From Sulfurospirillum barnesii SES-3 (GTDB lineage: Bacteria; Campylobacterota; Campylobacteria; Campylobacterales; Sulfurospirillaceae), in contig NC_018002.1 of assembly GCF_000265295.1 (NCBI RefSeq), positions 434,001-498,000 on the forward strand: a stretch of DNA of 64,000 nucleotides, written 5' to 3'. The notes under the pieces are model-generated. The model did no database searches. It was not told the origin of the DNA and saw only the letters and a program-made list of their open reading frames with translations. The translations under genes were made by a program, and so were the position numbers. Each line of letters starts with the position of its first letter. Positions within the stretch are counted from its first letter, which is position 1. Shown here in pieces: positions 28,094 to 32,299 of this stretch.

Positions 28094-28260
28094 CATCATT
28101 TCCTTTTTTACGCATCGTGTAAGTCTGTTGCATCATACAAAAAATATCATTAAAGAAGAAAAGCTAATCCGTTAGTGCCTTGAGGCTTCTGGTTATTTTC
28201 TTTACATGTAAAGATGGTTATCTTTGAAATTTTTTCTTAATGGATTGAATTGGGATGCTG

Positions 28261-28290
28261 AAAAGTTAAAAGTTTAGCTTAGATCCCTAA
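28261..28290. repeat. REP-like fragment at the island edge
   Basis: AAAAGTTAAAAGTTTAGC followed by a degenerate TTAGATCCC. The first 18 bases are shared with 50495-50511, where the element continues into AGCCCTGACCCC. Located 14 bases downstream of the nuclease-like gene's stop, so it marks one border of the AT-rich island. Confidence 0.4.
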
Positions 28291-28303
28291 AATTGAATTA
28301 TGG

Positions 28304-28978
28304 TTATGCAATTTGTAGCTTATTTTTAGTTTTATTGATAGTTTTTTCATGAAAAACTTGCATATAGAATTTTTCTGCTAAATACATATGTGCAATTAAA
28401 TTAGAAGGTTTTTCAAGTTTAGGGTTGATAATTACATTAACTTCATTAGGTGAAACCGACATAAGTCCAATATTGTTCTCTTTTAACAGTTCTTTATCCA
28501 CTCGATGTACAAACTCTTGGCTAATTGCTAAATAACTTTTATTTGAGTAAGGTTTATATCTCAGAGCTTGATAAAAACCATTTTTCCAATCATAAAGTTT
28601 AGCTTCTATAGATATAATATCTTTAACAGGAGCACTATATTTTTCTTTTACAAGTAAATTTTCATCATTTATTTGTTCTAGATTTCCGCCATCAAGTAAA
28701 AATTGAATTAAGCCAAATGCTTTTTTTTTGCTGAGAAACGTATTGCTATAAAACTCTTTTATTTCAATTATTTTATTTTTTCTATTTAGATAATTCATAA
28801 CAATAGAAATTAACTCATAATCTAAAATAAGCTCTTTTTTTTCTTCTAATTGTGTGGTATATACAAGATCAGCTATACCATTTCCCGAATTAAATTCATT
28901 AACAAAATGGCTATTTTTATGTCTAAAAGACAATTGTTCTTTTAAAATAGGAATCATCTCTTTTTCGTATCTAAACAT
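28304..28978 (-). CDS. PD-(D/E)XK nuclease-like protein, partner of the kinase
   Basis: 224 residues. NGIADLVY gives D37, then about 85 residues later SIEAKLYDWKNGFYQALRY gives E125-x-K127, Q137 and R140-Y141. Spacing and order (D...ExK...Q..RY) fit the PD-(D/E)XK nuclease core as seen in restriction-type enzymes, with a helical insert (residues about 50-110) that resembles a winged helix, with a recognisable helix-turn-helix (FLSKKKAFGLIQFLLDGG). The start ATG overlaps the stop of the kinase gene by 8 bases, so the two are co-translated. Codon use is strongly AT-rich. The nuclease call is an inference from motif geometry. Confidence 0.6.
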   Translation of the reverse strand: MFRYEKEMIPILKEQLSFRHKNSHFVNEFNSGNGIADLVYTTQLEEKKELILDYELISIVMNYLNRKNKIIEIKEFYSNTFLSKKKAFGLIQFLLDGGNLEQINDENLLVKEKYSAPVKDIISIEAKLYDWKNGFYQALRYKPYSNKSYLAISQEFVHRVDKELLKENNIGLMSVSPNEVNVIINPKLEKPSNLIAHMYLAEKFYMQVFHEKTINKTKNKLQIA

Positions 28979-31043
28979 AATGTTTATCCTTTATTTTTGT
29001 AAAAACATTTTTCCACCTATACAGAAAAGAATATTCATCACTTTTAAAGACATTTTTTAATCCACTATAGAGGCTTATTGCTACATCAATTTTATTGATA
29101 TAATTCATTATGTTAGTATTAATTGAATTTTTTTGAAGGTGAGCAATTTCCGTATGTATTATTTCTAAAAAATGCAAATGAGCGTTTTGGTCTTTCACAA
29201 TTTCGGCATTGGCTTTTTTATTGCAATAGTAACAATCACATGCACCAATATTTTTAATAATTTCATCAAATTTTATAGGTGTCTTTCTATTGATTGAGAC
29301 TGTTGTCAATAATTCTGGAAAGTAATATCTTGTATACATGTTAAATGCTTTACTACTTTCTTTATACAAATCCTCATAAAAACTCTCAAAACGTGCTGTT
29401 CCAGATGTGAATCCAGATAAACCTAAAGACAATAAACCTAATCCTAGACCAGTATTAATTCGACCAGCAATAACAGGCTTGTTTGTCCATTTTTGCAATT
29501 CAATTAAAAAATCTATATAGTGATATAAAATAACTTCATTAGTTTTGGTATCAATAGTATCTGCATAAATAAGGAAACCATCATTTTCAAAAGATGAAAA
29601 TGTGTTTAACAAAAACTTTTTGTCTTTATCATCTTTTAGAATATCGGCTTTGATACAAATTCCAGTGTATATTTCTTTGTTTGGATAAAAATTATTTCGG
29701 TAGTCAATACTTTCCTTTGCCAGTTTACAATCGAGGTCTAACCATTCAGCTGTTAGATTGCGGGTAGGACCATAGCTTATAGTTGAATTATTTGTGTAGT
29801 GAAAAGGTGATAATAAAATGTCTGCTTGAAGTTCAATTTGTTTATCAATGACTTTTTTTACATATTCTTTTTGTGCTTTATAACTTTCTAAATAAGTTGG
29901 CGTAATTACACTATAATCATTTGGTGCATATGGAAGCTCAAGTACTCCTTTTACATCCGTGTAAGTATCATATGCGAGTCGAACAGTTGCTGGATCAACT
30001 AAAATTTTAATATTTGGATTATCTTGTATATTTTTTCGTAATCCAGGTTGATTATTTTCTAAATTCGCAGGAAAGACAACATATCCAAATTTTTCATCAT
30101 GCTTTGTATATTTTTCTAATACGCTTTTGTCATTGTAAAGCCTGAGTAGAAATCTTGGTGATAAATCATAAACTTTCTCTCTTTGAGTATTTATTGGGTT
30201 TACTGCTTTTAAAATTTCATCAATTGTTAAAAATCTTTGGTATGGATTTTTTTCTAATAATTTCAAAATCACATTTTCAATTTGATTACTTATGCTAAGA
30301 TTTCTTCGTCTTGGTGGAATTGCTGGGTCATTTTTTATCTTTTCAATTAGTTCAGGAAAATATTGAAAATCATAAGGATAATATCCAGTTAATATCTCAT
30401 ATAATATAACACCCGCAGTATATAGGTCACTTCTCTTGTCTAAATGCTTGCTATCAGTGATTTGTTCTGGCGACATATACGGACCTGTTCCAAATATTTC
30501 GCCTGTGCTTGTTAATGAAGTAAAGTCAATCACTTTTGATATACCAAAGTCAACTATTTTGATTTGTCCGTTATTCTGAATAATAATATTTTCAGGCTTT
30601 AAATCTCTGTGAATAATTCCTGTATCGTCATCTTCGCCTTTATGATTGTGAAGATAATCAAGCCCTTCTAATATTTGTTTAAATAGTTCTAAAGCCTTTT
30701 CTTCATTGAGTTTCTCTTCTTGATTTAGAATTTCTCTAAGATTATGCCCTTCAATAAATTTCATAACCAAAAAATAGTTTTTTCCGCTTTCATCTTCAAT
30801 AATAAAATCATCAACATATTCAACGAGATATTCATGAGAAACAGACTTCATAATTTCTATTTCTCTTTGAAGTCTATTATTTTCACCATGTTTTTTATAT
30901 TCACGTAAAACATACTCTTCATGGAAGACTTTAATAGCAAAAAAATCAGTAGCTTTTTGAGCTTTATAGACAGCTCCAAAGCCACCCTTATTTATGAAAG
31001 AAATAAACTTATAATCTTTAATGGTTTGATTGAGTATGTTCAA
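28971..31043 (-). CDS. Ser/Thr protein kinase with TIM-barrel-like C-terminal half and TGT-like zinc motif
   Basis: 690 residues. Residues 10-275 are a complete eukaryotic-type kinase: glycine loop NKGGFGAVYKA, K38 in FAIKVF, catalytic IIHRDLKPENII, IVDFGISKV, YMSPEQI in place of APE, and DLYTAGVILYEIL. There is no transmembrane segment after the kinase, unlike PknB. Residues about 290-600 alternate hydrophobic strands and helices (IKILVDPATVRLAY, ADILLSPFHYTNN, YTGICIKADIL, GFLIYADTID, KPVIAGRINTGLGLG) in the order of an (alpha/beta)8 barrel. Then C602-D-C604-Y-Y-C607-x22-H630 matches the zinc site spacing of tRNA-guanine transglycosylases. Whether the barrel is enzymatically related is inference. 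First gene of a two-gene AT-rich unit with the nuclease-like gene. Confidence 0.82.
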   Translation of the reverse strand: MNILNQTIKDYKFISFINKGGFGAVYKAQKATDFFAIKVFHEEYVLREYKKHGENNRLQREIEIMKSVSHEYLVEYVDDFIIEDESGKNYFLVMKFIEGHNLREILNQEEKLNEEKALELFKQILEGLDYLHNHKGEDDDTGIIHRDLKPENIIIQNNGQIKIVDFGISKVIDFTSLTSTGEIFGTGPYMSPEQITDSKHLDKRSDLYTAGVILYEILTGYYPYDFQYFPELIEKIKNDPAIPPRRRNLSISNQIENVILKLLEKNPYQRFLTIDEILKAVNPINTQREKVYDLSPRFLLRLYNDKSVLEKYTKHDEKFGYVVFPANLENNQPGLRKNIQDNPNIKILVDPATVRLAYDTYTDVKGVLELPYAPNDYSVITPTYLESYKAQKEYVKKVIDKQIELQADILLSPFHYTNNSTISYGPTRNLTAEWLDLDCKLAKESIDYRNNFYPNKEIYTGICIKADILKDDKDKKFLLNTFSSFENDGFLIYADTIDTKTNEVILYHYIDFLIELQKWTNKPVIAGRINTGLGLGLLSLGLSGFTSGTARFESFYEDLYKESSKAFNMYTRYYFPELLTTVSINRKTPIKFDEIIKNIGACDCYYCNKKANAEIVKDQNAHLHFLEIIHTEIAHLQKNSINTNIMNYINKIDVAISLYSGLKNVFKSDEYSFLYRWKNVFTKIKDKHYV

Positions 31044-31107
31044 AATGACCCCTCATTGAATATATTGCCAAAAAGGTATGGCTATCTGTTTATAGAATGT
31101 AGAAATT

Positions 31108-31248
31108 TTAGGGCAAGACCCTCGCCACAGCTACAAGAGTAAACTCTTGGACAAATGAACCATCTATAAAAATGGCAACTGCTAGCGAAATCCACCCTAA
31201 GGCAGACGGGAGAATCTGTTTTAGAAGACTTGTTTGTTTTTCTTTCAT
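31108..31248 (-). CDS. Small single-pass membrane protein
   Basis: 46 residues, MKEKQTSLLKQILPSALGW then a hydrophobic segment ISLAVAIFIDGSFVQEFTLVAVARVLP. The start is ATG 31248, with AAGGAG six bases upstream; a frame opening at 31323 has none. No family is recognised. Lies between the kinase and NERD genes, same strand. Confidence 0.5.
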   Translation of the reverse strand: MKEKQTSLLKQILPSALGWISLAVAIFIDGSFVQEFTLVAVARVLP

Positions 31249-31398
31249 ACTCGCTCCTTGACTATTCATTTTTATTTTTTCAGACAAGTGGCGAGAAACT
31301 ATACCCGCAATGTTTTTAGGCATTGCTCTAAAATTTCTATTACCTCATATTGTATCTAAAGTTTTCTGACTAAATAACGATAAAAACAACCAAAAAGG

Positions 31399-32145
31399 CT
31401 AGATTTTTATAACATTCCGACACTTCGGGTATCCACTGCATCCGTAAAATTCTTGTCTCGTTTGTCTATTTTGCCTTAAAACCATCTTTTTGCCACATCG
31501 AAAACATATTTTAGCTGATGGTGTTGGCGTGGGTTTTGCGTTGTGTCGTTCCTGTAAGTTAGCAACATGTTCTCTATCGGTTGAAAAGCTTTGTTTGAGA
31601 CGTTTTTGGTTTAGGGTTTCTATCGTCATATCAAATTGATAGGCGGAGAGTTTTTCTTCTTGAAAAGATTCGATGTAGGACGTGTATTTTGCATTGATAA
31701 AAACATTGTTTGGCATAGCGGTTTTAAACTTGCAATCGCCGATGAAAACAACGATAGATATGATGCTTTCAGAGGGCAATGCCAATATCTCTTCTAAAGC
31801 TTTGGTATGGCGATAGTTTTGGCGTAAAGGGTTTTGAAAGCGGTGTTTTTCTTTGAAGATTTGTTGTGTCCACATGCTCTGGTGCTCATCGCCAAAAATC
31901 CACCCTTTCATGTTTTTTGTCTCAATTACAAAAACACCATAACGAGAGACAATGACATGGTCTATCTGTGTGGTTGAACCATCATTTAATTGCAAAGTGA
32001 TATTTTTAATATTGACATATTCTTCTTTATTGAGATGCAAAGAAGTCGCAATATTGACCGTAAATTCGCCAACTTTGCCTTTCATCCAAGGTGTTTTAAA
32101 TAAAATTCCCAGTACAAAAACAGAAACAAGAAGCCAAAAAATCAC
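31399..32145 (-). CDS. NERD-domain protein with C-terminal zinc ribbon
   Basis: 248 residues from GTG 32145. One membrane segment (about residues 1-18, FWLLVSVFVLGILF) anchors it. The NERD (nuclease-related) domain spans about 22-135: KGKVGEFTVNIATSL, then DHVIVSRYGVFVIETKNMKGWIFG with the D...E-T-K metal-binding pattern of the PD-(D/E)XK fold, then NPLRQNYRH. A topoisomerase-type zinc ribbon at the end, CFRCGKKMVLR..GCSGYPKC, suggests nucleic-acid binding. Family members occur singly or fused to kinases and helicases; their roles are mostly unproven. It lies at the outer end of the island. Confidence 0.88.
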   Translation of the reverse strand: MIFWLLVSVFVLGILFKTPWMKGKVGEFTVNIATSLHLNKEEYVNIKNITLQLNDGSTTQIDHVIVSRYGVFVIETKNMKGWIFGDEHQSMWTQQIFKEKHRFQNPLRQNYRHTKALEEILALPSESIISIVVFIGDCKFKTAMPNNVFINAKYTSYIESFQEEKLSAYQFDMTIETLNQKRLKQSFSTDREHVANLQERHNAKPTPTPSAKICFRCGKKMVLRQNRQTRQEFYGCSGYPKCRNVIKI

Positions 32146-32165
32146 TTTATTTGCCTTTACATGTA

Positions 32166-32299
32166 AATATAGAATTATACCATTGTATTAATTTTTCAAC
32201 CTCAATCGCTTCACCACTCCCTTTTCAATGAGCGTCTTCTGGTTCACATTTCACCTCTGTTTTTTTGTTTATGCGATACTCTCTCTTTGCATGTAAAGC
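32166..32299. other. Intergenic stretch without recognisable features
   Basis: 134 bases with a near-copy of the dispersed palindrome (TTTGCATGTAAA at about 32286) just downstream of the Fe-S protein gene. No open reading frame, RNA or hairpin is apparent. Confidence 0.4.

What the first reader, a model, noticed from the sequence alone, without database searches (positions are those of the whole stretch)
28304..31043. Two-gene unit: Ser/Thr kinase fused to a TIM-barrel-like domain with a TGT-type zinc motif, plus a PD-(D/E)XK-like protein
The kinase (28971-31043) has all catalytic motifs but no membrane anchor. Its last 400 residues look like an (alpha/beta) barrel ending in C602-x-C604-x2-C607-x22-H630, the spacing of the zinc site in archaeal tRNA-guanine transglycosylases, a family that includes DNA-modifying relatives (DpdA). 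I do not see the TGT nucleophile motif, so it may be a repurposed sensor domain. The partner has D37, E125-x-K127 and Q137 in nuclease-like geometry with a winged-helix insert, and its start overlaps the kinase stop by 8 bases. The unit is AT-rich, lacks the TACATGTA motif, and lies next to a NERD protein. A kinase that controls a nuclease is a plausible antiphage or genome-defence design, not one I can name.
Basis: partly seen in the sequence, partly recalled or inferred. Interest (0 to 1): 0.85.

Follow-up and report, generated by a model that had tools for sequence, protein, structure and literature searches.

The report
Mobile kinase, TGT-fold, nuclease gene module
Two neighbouring genes encode an active protein kinase fused to a reshaped copy of a tRNA-modifying enzyme, plus a DNA-cutting type of protein; the same set recurs in very different bacteria, in an archaeon and in mobile elements under no known name, so it is probably an undescribed defence system against invading DNA.

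Summary
Window 28304-31043 encodes (i) a Hanks-type Ser/Thr kinase fused to a TGT-fold barrel and (ii) a PD-(D/E)XK protein with a winged-helix insert, overlapping by 8 bp. The set is not a local oddity. A scan seeded only with the partner gave, with earlier hits, 88 distinct loci in bacteria and one archaeon; 85 also encode the barrel and 69 the kinase, fused or separate. Kinase (K38, E61, D147, N152, D165) and nuclease (E5, E28, D37, Q137) residues are essentially invariant. The barrel has the TGT fold (arcTGT Z 22.4) and an invariant Asp at the TGT D102 site, but by alignment lacks the TGT nucleophile and base-binding Asp; it matches no Pfam, NCBIfam or PADLOC family. Three Microbacterium hosts have neither QueC nor a canonical TGT, so 7-deazaguanine is not generally needed. 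The module travels in plasmids, prophages, P4-like satellites and Tn7-like transposons; here it fills an insertion hotspot. Phosphatases often sit beside it; in one clade a PIN RNase gene occurs instead of the kinase. Best reading: an undescribed mobile defence or conflict module whose barrel is a repurposed reader. Function is inferred, not shown. The zinc histidine is H624, not H630.

The parts
28971..31043 (-). Ser/Thr kinase fused to TGT-fold barrel (690 aa)
30180..31016 (-). kinase domain (residues about 10-288) with K38, E61, HRD145-147, N152, DFG165-167
28974..30173 (-). TGT-fold barrel domain (residues 291-690)
   Evidence: AlphaFold2 pLDDT 94.7; arcTGT 1iq8 Z 22.4, rmsd 3.1 over 301 residues
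29994..29996 (-). codon of D350, invariant (69/69 ungapped rows), at the position of TGT Asp102
29172..29240 (-). zinc-type site C602-x-C604-x2-C607-x16-H624
   Evidence: triad in 32/72 barrels; H624 in 32/32 of these and 21/40 of the rest
28304..28978 (-). PD-(D/E)XK nuclease-fold partner (224 aa)
   Evidence: pLDDT 94.0; 3dnx Z 15.0, PaqCI 8em1 Z 11.4, 2vld repair endonuclease Z 9.9; E5, E28, D37, E125, K127, Q137 invariant
28643..28831 (-). winged-helix insert of the partner (residues about 50-112)
   Evidence: structure matches to winged helices at 47-115; MarR/HTH profile matches
28148..32211 (.). accessory segment in an insertion hotspot: module plus NERD gene, missing at this site from two close relatives
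   Evidence: blastn against L128 and L129
31399..32145 (-). NERD-domain protein with Top1-type zinc ribbon; same insert, link to the module not shown
   Evidence: PF08378 E 9.3e-32, PF01396 E 5.8e-10

Best explanation
A horizontally mobile conflict module, most likely anti-phage or anti-plasmid defence, of three parts: an active cytosolic Ser/Thr kinase, a TGT-fold barrel that has lost transglycosylase chemistry and serves as a reader (of a nucleobase, a nucleic-acid feature or a modified partner), and an active PD-(D/E)XK nuclease usually carrying a winged helix for DNA binding. Barrel and nuclease form the constant recognition and cutting core. The kinase, in some lineages balanced by a phosphatase gene, is a phospho-switch or toxic effector set by that core; in this window it is wired directly by fusion to the barrel. 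Shown here: domains, active-site conservation, linkage across phyla, mobility. Inferred: that the barrel reads rather than catalyses, that nuclease and kinase are the output, and that the purpose is defence.
For: Linkage from a partner-only seed: 85/88 distinct loci with barrel, 69/88 with kinase; from the barrel side both plasmid hits and G162 also have the partner. Linkage survives changes of layout: 48 convergent and 36 co-directional pairs, 21 kinase-barrel fusions, the rest separate genes. Catalytic residues kept in kinase (67-68/68) and nuclease (E5, E28, D37, Q137 76/76). Barrel: TGT fold, D350 69/69, nucleophile position T/S/G/A, base-binding Asp position P413. Hosts without QueC and TGT (Microbacterium). 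Vehicles: 5 plasmids, prophage with integrase and IrrE-type peptidase (L133), P4-like satellites (L130, L041 with Psu), Tn7-like transposons (L057, L090). Hotspot: close relative G024 has DUF433/DUF5615-like and RelBE-like pairs (by eye) and an FRG gene at this site; 1 of 44 family genomes has the module. Phosphatase genes beside the module: PP2C 12 members, metallophosphoesterase 5. Tn7-like cargo is enriched in defence genes (PMC8649781).
Against: No phage-challenge data; no PADLOC model for barrel or partner; R-M and toxin-antitoxin genes near the loci were seen but not measured against a background; the nucleophile and base-site assignments rest on a weak profile alignment (hhalign P 0.0014, probability 17%) plus motif order, not on a structural superposition; the mobile context would also suit an addiction or DNA-maintenance module; the NERD gene may be an unrelated passenger.
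Confidence: 0.5

Rival explanations
1. Toxin-antitoxin-like addiction module: the kinase (or, in one clade, the PIN RNase) is the toxin, the barrel and PD-(D/E)XK protein are its restraint and DNA-binding regulator, and a phosphatase gene adds an antidote; its benefit is maintenance of the carrying element.
For: PIN gene between partner and barrel in six kinase-less loci, their barrels one clade (100/99); phosphatase neighbours; plasmid, prophage and transposon carriage. A GHKL kinase-STAS-PIN toxin system, vapKSC, exists elsewhere (PMC13373217).
Against: The partner keeps a complete nuclease active site in all 76 aligned relatives, more than a DNA-binding regulator needs; three genes and no typical small antitoxin.
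Confidence: 0.2
2. Modification-restriction pair: the barrel still exchanges a base, marking self DNA (Dpd-like), and the partner cuts unmarked DNA, under kinase control.
For: TGT fold and zinc site; DpdA 7ui4 among Foldseek matches (E 7.5e-4); an invariant Asp in the TGT D102 position.
Against: TGT nucleophile and base-binding Asp replaced; Microbacterium hosts lack QueC and TGT; no companion preQ0 or dpd genes in the window neighbourhood.
Confidence: 0.1
3. DNA-repair or replication accessory of mobile elements: an MmcB-like nuclease with kinase regulation, not defence.
For: Best structural match of the partner is 3dnx (SPO1766; MmcB-like by my recollection, not tested), Z 15.0; the Priestia plasmid copy lies next to a damage-repair protein gene.
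Against: Sparse distribution (1/44 genomes of the family); hotspot exchange with toxin-antitoxin-like and FRG genes; a repair role would not predict the exchangeable third gene.
Confidence: 0.12
4. Cap10-like protein-conjugate reader: the barrel binds a nucleobase-modified protein terminus and licenses kinase or nuclease.
For: Cap10 (9ntn) is a Foldseek match (E 1.1e-4); Cap10 is described as a remodelled TGT-family protein in type IV CBASS (PMC11996544).
Against: No CD-NTase or QueC-like gene in the window neighbourhood; hosts without QueC; canonical TGTs match better than Cap10.
Confidence: 0.08

Closest known systems
Archaeosine/queuine tRNA-guanine transglycosylases (TGT, PF01702)
   Same: Whole-domain fold (1iq8 Z 22.4; the 50 listed entries are all TGTs), Asp at the D102 position, C-x-C-x2-C...H zinc site in part of the family
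   Different: No PF01702 match, nucleophile and base-binding Asp replaced, kinase fusion or linkage, some hosts without canonical TGT
Cap10 of type IV CBASS
   Same: TGT fold reused in a conflict system
   Different: No CD-NTase or Cap9/QueC-like partner seen; linked to kinase and nuclease instead
DpdA / Dpd systems and the TGT-bearing BREX-related capture (BRC) systems (PMC12839542)
   Same: TGT-fold protein in defence loci
   Different: No dpd, PglZ, BrxC or HerA genes here; no Ser/Thr kinase is named among the BRC components in the passages read
Defence kinases: PD-T4-6, MADS6/Mad6, PglW
   Same: Hanks-type kinase domain (PADLOC PD-T4-6 E 5.9e-69, mad6 E 7e-67, residues about 6-290)
   Different: Match limited to the kinase domain; no companion genes of these systems beside the module; here a TGT-fold barrel and a dedicated nuclease
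SPO1766 (3dnx), PaqCI, archaeal repair endonuclease 2vld (PD-(D/E)XK)
   Same: Nuclease core and motif order
   Different: Winged-helix insert between motif D and E-x-K; no sequence-family match
CapK/CapS and vapKSC (PMC13373217)
   Same: Kinase modules attached to immune or PIN effectors
   Different: Those kinases are GHKL with STAS partners; this one is Hanks-type with a TGT-fold partner

Membership tests
TGT (PF01702) | TGT-type barrel fold | tested here: met
TGT (PF01702) | sequence match to the family model | tested here: not met
   PF01702 not among the matches of any of 72 barrels at E 0.1
TGT (PF01702) | nucleophilic Asp (FD-x-x-x-PTR motif) | tested here: not met
   aligned position T546 is T/S/G/A in most rows; motif absent; the alignment there is manual
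TGT (PF01702) | base-recognition Asp156 | tested here: not met
   P413 in 69/72
TGT (PF01702) | Asp102 and zinc site | tested here: met
   D350 69/69; Cys triad plus H624 in this window and in 32/72 of the family
DpdA / Dpd | preQ0 supply and dpd companion genes | tested here: not met
   no such genes beside the module in the window; three Microbacterium hosts lack QueC
Cap10 / type IV CBASS | CD-NTase and QueC-like Cap9 in the operon | tested here: not met
   window neighbourhood; neither among the top 25 neighbour families
PD-(D/E)XK nuclease superfamily | fold plus D and E-x-K in order | tested here: met
   E-x-K-L and W were part of the scan pattern, so only A1 is independent for them
PD-(D/E)XK nuclease superfamily | nuclease activity | not testable with these tools
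   needs biochemistry
Hanks-type Ser/Thr kinase | Lys, alphaC Glu, HRD Asp, Asn, DFG Asp | tested here: met
BREX / PglW | PglZ, BrxC, PglX companions | tested here: not met
   none beside the module
Anti-phage defence system | protects a host against phage | not testable with these tools
   needs a plaque assay in a laboratory strain

The most novel reading that the evidence does not exclude
A new kind of prokaryotic immune module in which a catalytically retired TGT-fold protein acts as a reader of a base or nucleotide feature of invading nucleic acid and, with a dedicated winged-helix PD-(D/E)XK nuclease, triggers interchangeable effectors: a reversible Ser/Thr kinase in most lineages, a PIN RNase in one.
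Probability: 0.3. Interest if true: 0.87.

Novelty: new variant of a known kind. Interest (0 to 1): 0.72.

Why it matters
A three-part gene set with conserved active sites in two of its enzymes, found in some 90 loci across bacteria, one archaeon and four kinds of mobile element, has no name in Pfam, NCBIfam or PADLOC, and no description was found in the papers searched. If it is defence, it adds a further use of the TGT fold in immunity (beside DpdA and Cap10), apparently without 7-deazaguanine chemistry, and a phospho-controlled nuclease. The parts are small (2.7 kb) and can be tested in laboratory hosts.

Tried and rejected
E. coli genomes and phage records: no match. Viral contigs with the single window partner: none; with alignment A3: 8. 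First alignment too divergent for the scan. Sequence profile of the barrel against PDB chains: only chance hits; sequence-level link to TGT weak, so homology rests on fold. G321/L006 hit to the partner was a false match inside an unrelated 511-aa protein. A DUF4065/Panacea-like gene guessed upstream of kinase-less loci L005, L060, L066, L068 gave no Pfam match where tested, so not claimed. CapK/CapS rejected: different kinase fold. H630 as zinc ligand rejected. Literature searches found no kinase-TGT-nuclease module; subscription papers and most preprints are not held.

Full report
WHAT IS THERE. The window (G000:C1:434001-498000 of a 2.51 Mb single-contig genome) holds two minus-strand genes. 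The first, 31043-28971, is 690 residues: a Hanks-type Ser/Thr kinase (Pkinase E 7.7e-52 at residues 12-279) followed by a 400-residue domain with no Pfam, NCBIfam or PADLOC family. The second, 28978-28304, is 224 residues with no convincing family match, and overlaps the first by 8 bp. The TTG start of the kinase has GAGGGG just upstream. The kinase has no membrane-like segment.

THE BARREL. With 71 relatives as alignment, AlphaFold2 gives mean pLDDT 94.7. Foldseek ranks tRNA-guanine transglycosylases first (E 1.4e-6), with Cap10 of type IV CBASS at 1.1e-4 and DpdA at 7.5e-4. VIA-align puts archaeosine TGT 1iq8 at Z 22.4, 3.1 A over 301 residues, and the 50 listed entries are all TGTs, so this is the TGT fold and not merely a TIM barrel. 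By profile alignment (weak: P 0.0014, probability 17%) and motif order, the TGT base-binding Asp falls on P413 (69/72) and the TGT nucleophile Asp on T546 (T, S, G or A in most rows), while the TGT Asp102 position is D350, present in all 69 rows without a gap there. No member matches PF01702. The zinc site is optional in the family.

THE PARTNER. The model (pLDDT 94.0) matches PD-(D/E)XK proteins: 3dnx Z 15.0, PaqCI Z 11.4, repair endonuclease 2vld Z 9.9, with a winged helix at about residues 50-112. E5, E28, D37, E125, K127, W131 and Q137 are invariant in the seven first relatives and in 76 sequences. The genome scan required E-x-K-L-x-[DN]-W, so for those residues only one search is independent; E5, E28, D37 and Q137 are independent throughout. 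Some relatives lack the winged helix (short partners such as L049, L053, L090).

IT IS A MODULE. tblastn of the partner against plasmids gave five records (Priestia, Kocuria, Natribaculum, Kineococcus, Polaromonas), all with kinase and barrel beside it. A scan of 84,980 species genomes seeded only with the partner gave 129 relatives, of which 80 loci were kept. With profiles for the three parts, and the window locus counted once, 88 distinct loci carry the partner, 85 the barrel and 69 the kinase; the three without barrel lie at contig ends. From the barrel side, both plasmid hits and G162 carry the partner. Layout varies: 48 convergent and 36 co-directional partner-barrel pairs, 21 kinase-barrel fusions. 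Linkage that survives such rearrangement points to joint function. Kinase catalytic residues are kept in 67-68 of 68 kinases.

VARIANTS. PP2C genes are the commonest immediate neighbour (12 members), metallophosphoesterases next (5); G162 has kinase, barrel and a PP2C-like gene in a row. In six Patescibacteria-type loci a PIN_3 gene (E 1e-10 to 1e-13 in the three tested) lies between partner and barrel and no kinase is present; their barrels form one clade (100/99), next to a second kinase-less clade of four (91/79, below the tool's threshold for firm support). So barrel plus nuclease is the constant core. Whether the PIN gene took over the kinase's role is inferred. Most other kinase-less loci end at contig edges; L052 is degraded.

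MOBILITY. Besides plasmids, copies sit in a prophage between integrase and IrrE-type peptidase/repressor genes (L133), in P4-like satellites (L130 with a D5-type primase; L041 with Psu, E 5.7e-83) and in Tn7-like transposons (L057 with TnsA and TnsD/TniQ; L090). In this window the segment 28148-32211 (module plus NERD gene) is missing from two close relatives whose flanks are about 92-96% (G024) and 78-95% (G026) identical; at the same site G024 carries an FRG gene and small genes that look like DUF433/DUF5615 and RelBE pairs, and G026 carries other genes. Only 1 of 44 genomes of the family has the module. G+C is 28-29% against about 38-40%, and the genome's abundant TACATGTA motif is absent from the insert (about two copies would be expected in this length, so this alone is weak). 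The eight viral contigs relatives have barrel in six and kinase in five.

MECHANISM. Shown: two enzymes with intact active-site residues, a TGT-fold domain with one invariant Asp, linkage, mobility. Inferred: the barrel reads rather than exchanges a base, since the nucleophile is not seen, and since three Microbacterium hosts have neither QueC nor any canonical TGT 7-deazaguanine chemistry is not generally required. The barrel-nuclease core would recognise foreign or damaged nucleic acid; the kinase, sometimes opposed by a phosphatase, would gate the nuclease or act as a growth-arresting effector. I put defence or conflict as most likely (0.5 for the full statement), a toxin-antitoxin reading at 0.2, repair at 0.12, modification-restriction at 0.1, and a Cap10-like conjugate reader at 0.08.

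NOVELTY. Folds are known; the gene set is not in the libraries searched, and searches of open papers found no description. Subscription papers and most preprints could not be checked. I file it as a new variant of a known kind (mobile multi-gene defence modules), with the stronger reading given as the novel case.

Noticed in passing
window, 36 sites, e.g. 28203 and 32158: TACATGTA occurs 36 times in 64 kb (0.78 expected from shuffles), a strong genome signature, absent from 28211-32157.
   Followed up: partly
window 28148-32211; L128 and L129: Insertion hotspot between the DUF6953 gene and a ferredoxin-type gene: three related genomes carry three unrelated gene sets there.
   Followed up: yes
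L021, L025, L029, L033, L034, L035: PIN_3-domain gene between partner and barrel in kinase-less loci.
   Followed up: partly
L005, L060, L066, L068: A kinase-less clade with other small genes upstream of the partner, no Pfam match where tested.
   Followed up: partly
L033, L035: Kinase-less loci lying beside type I R-M-like genes (specificity and methylase-like, by sequence reading).
   Followed up: no
L032, L046, L051: A conserved family of about 200 aa without Pfam match (L032, L051 tested) near the kinase gene.
   Followed up: partly
L132: A viral contig with the partner but no barrel or kinase found nearby, the one non-edge exception seen.
   Followed up: no
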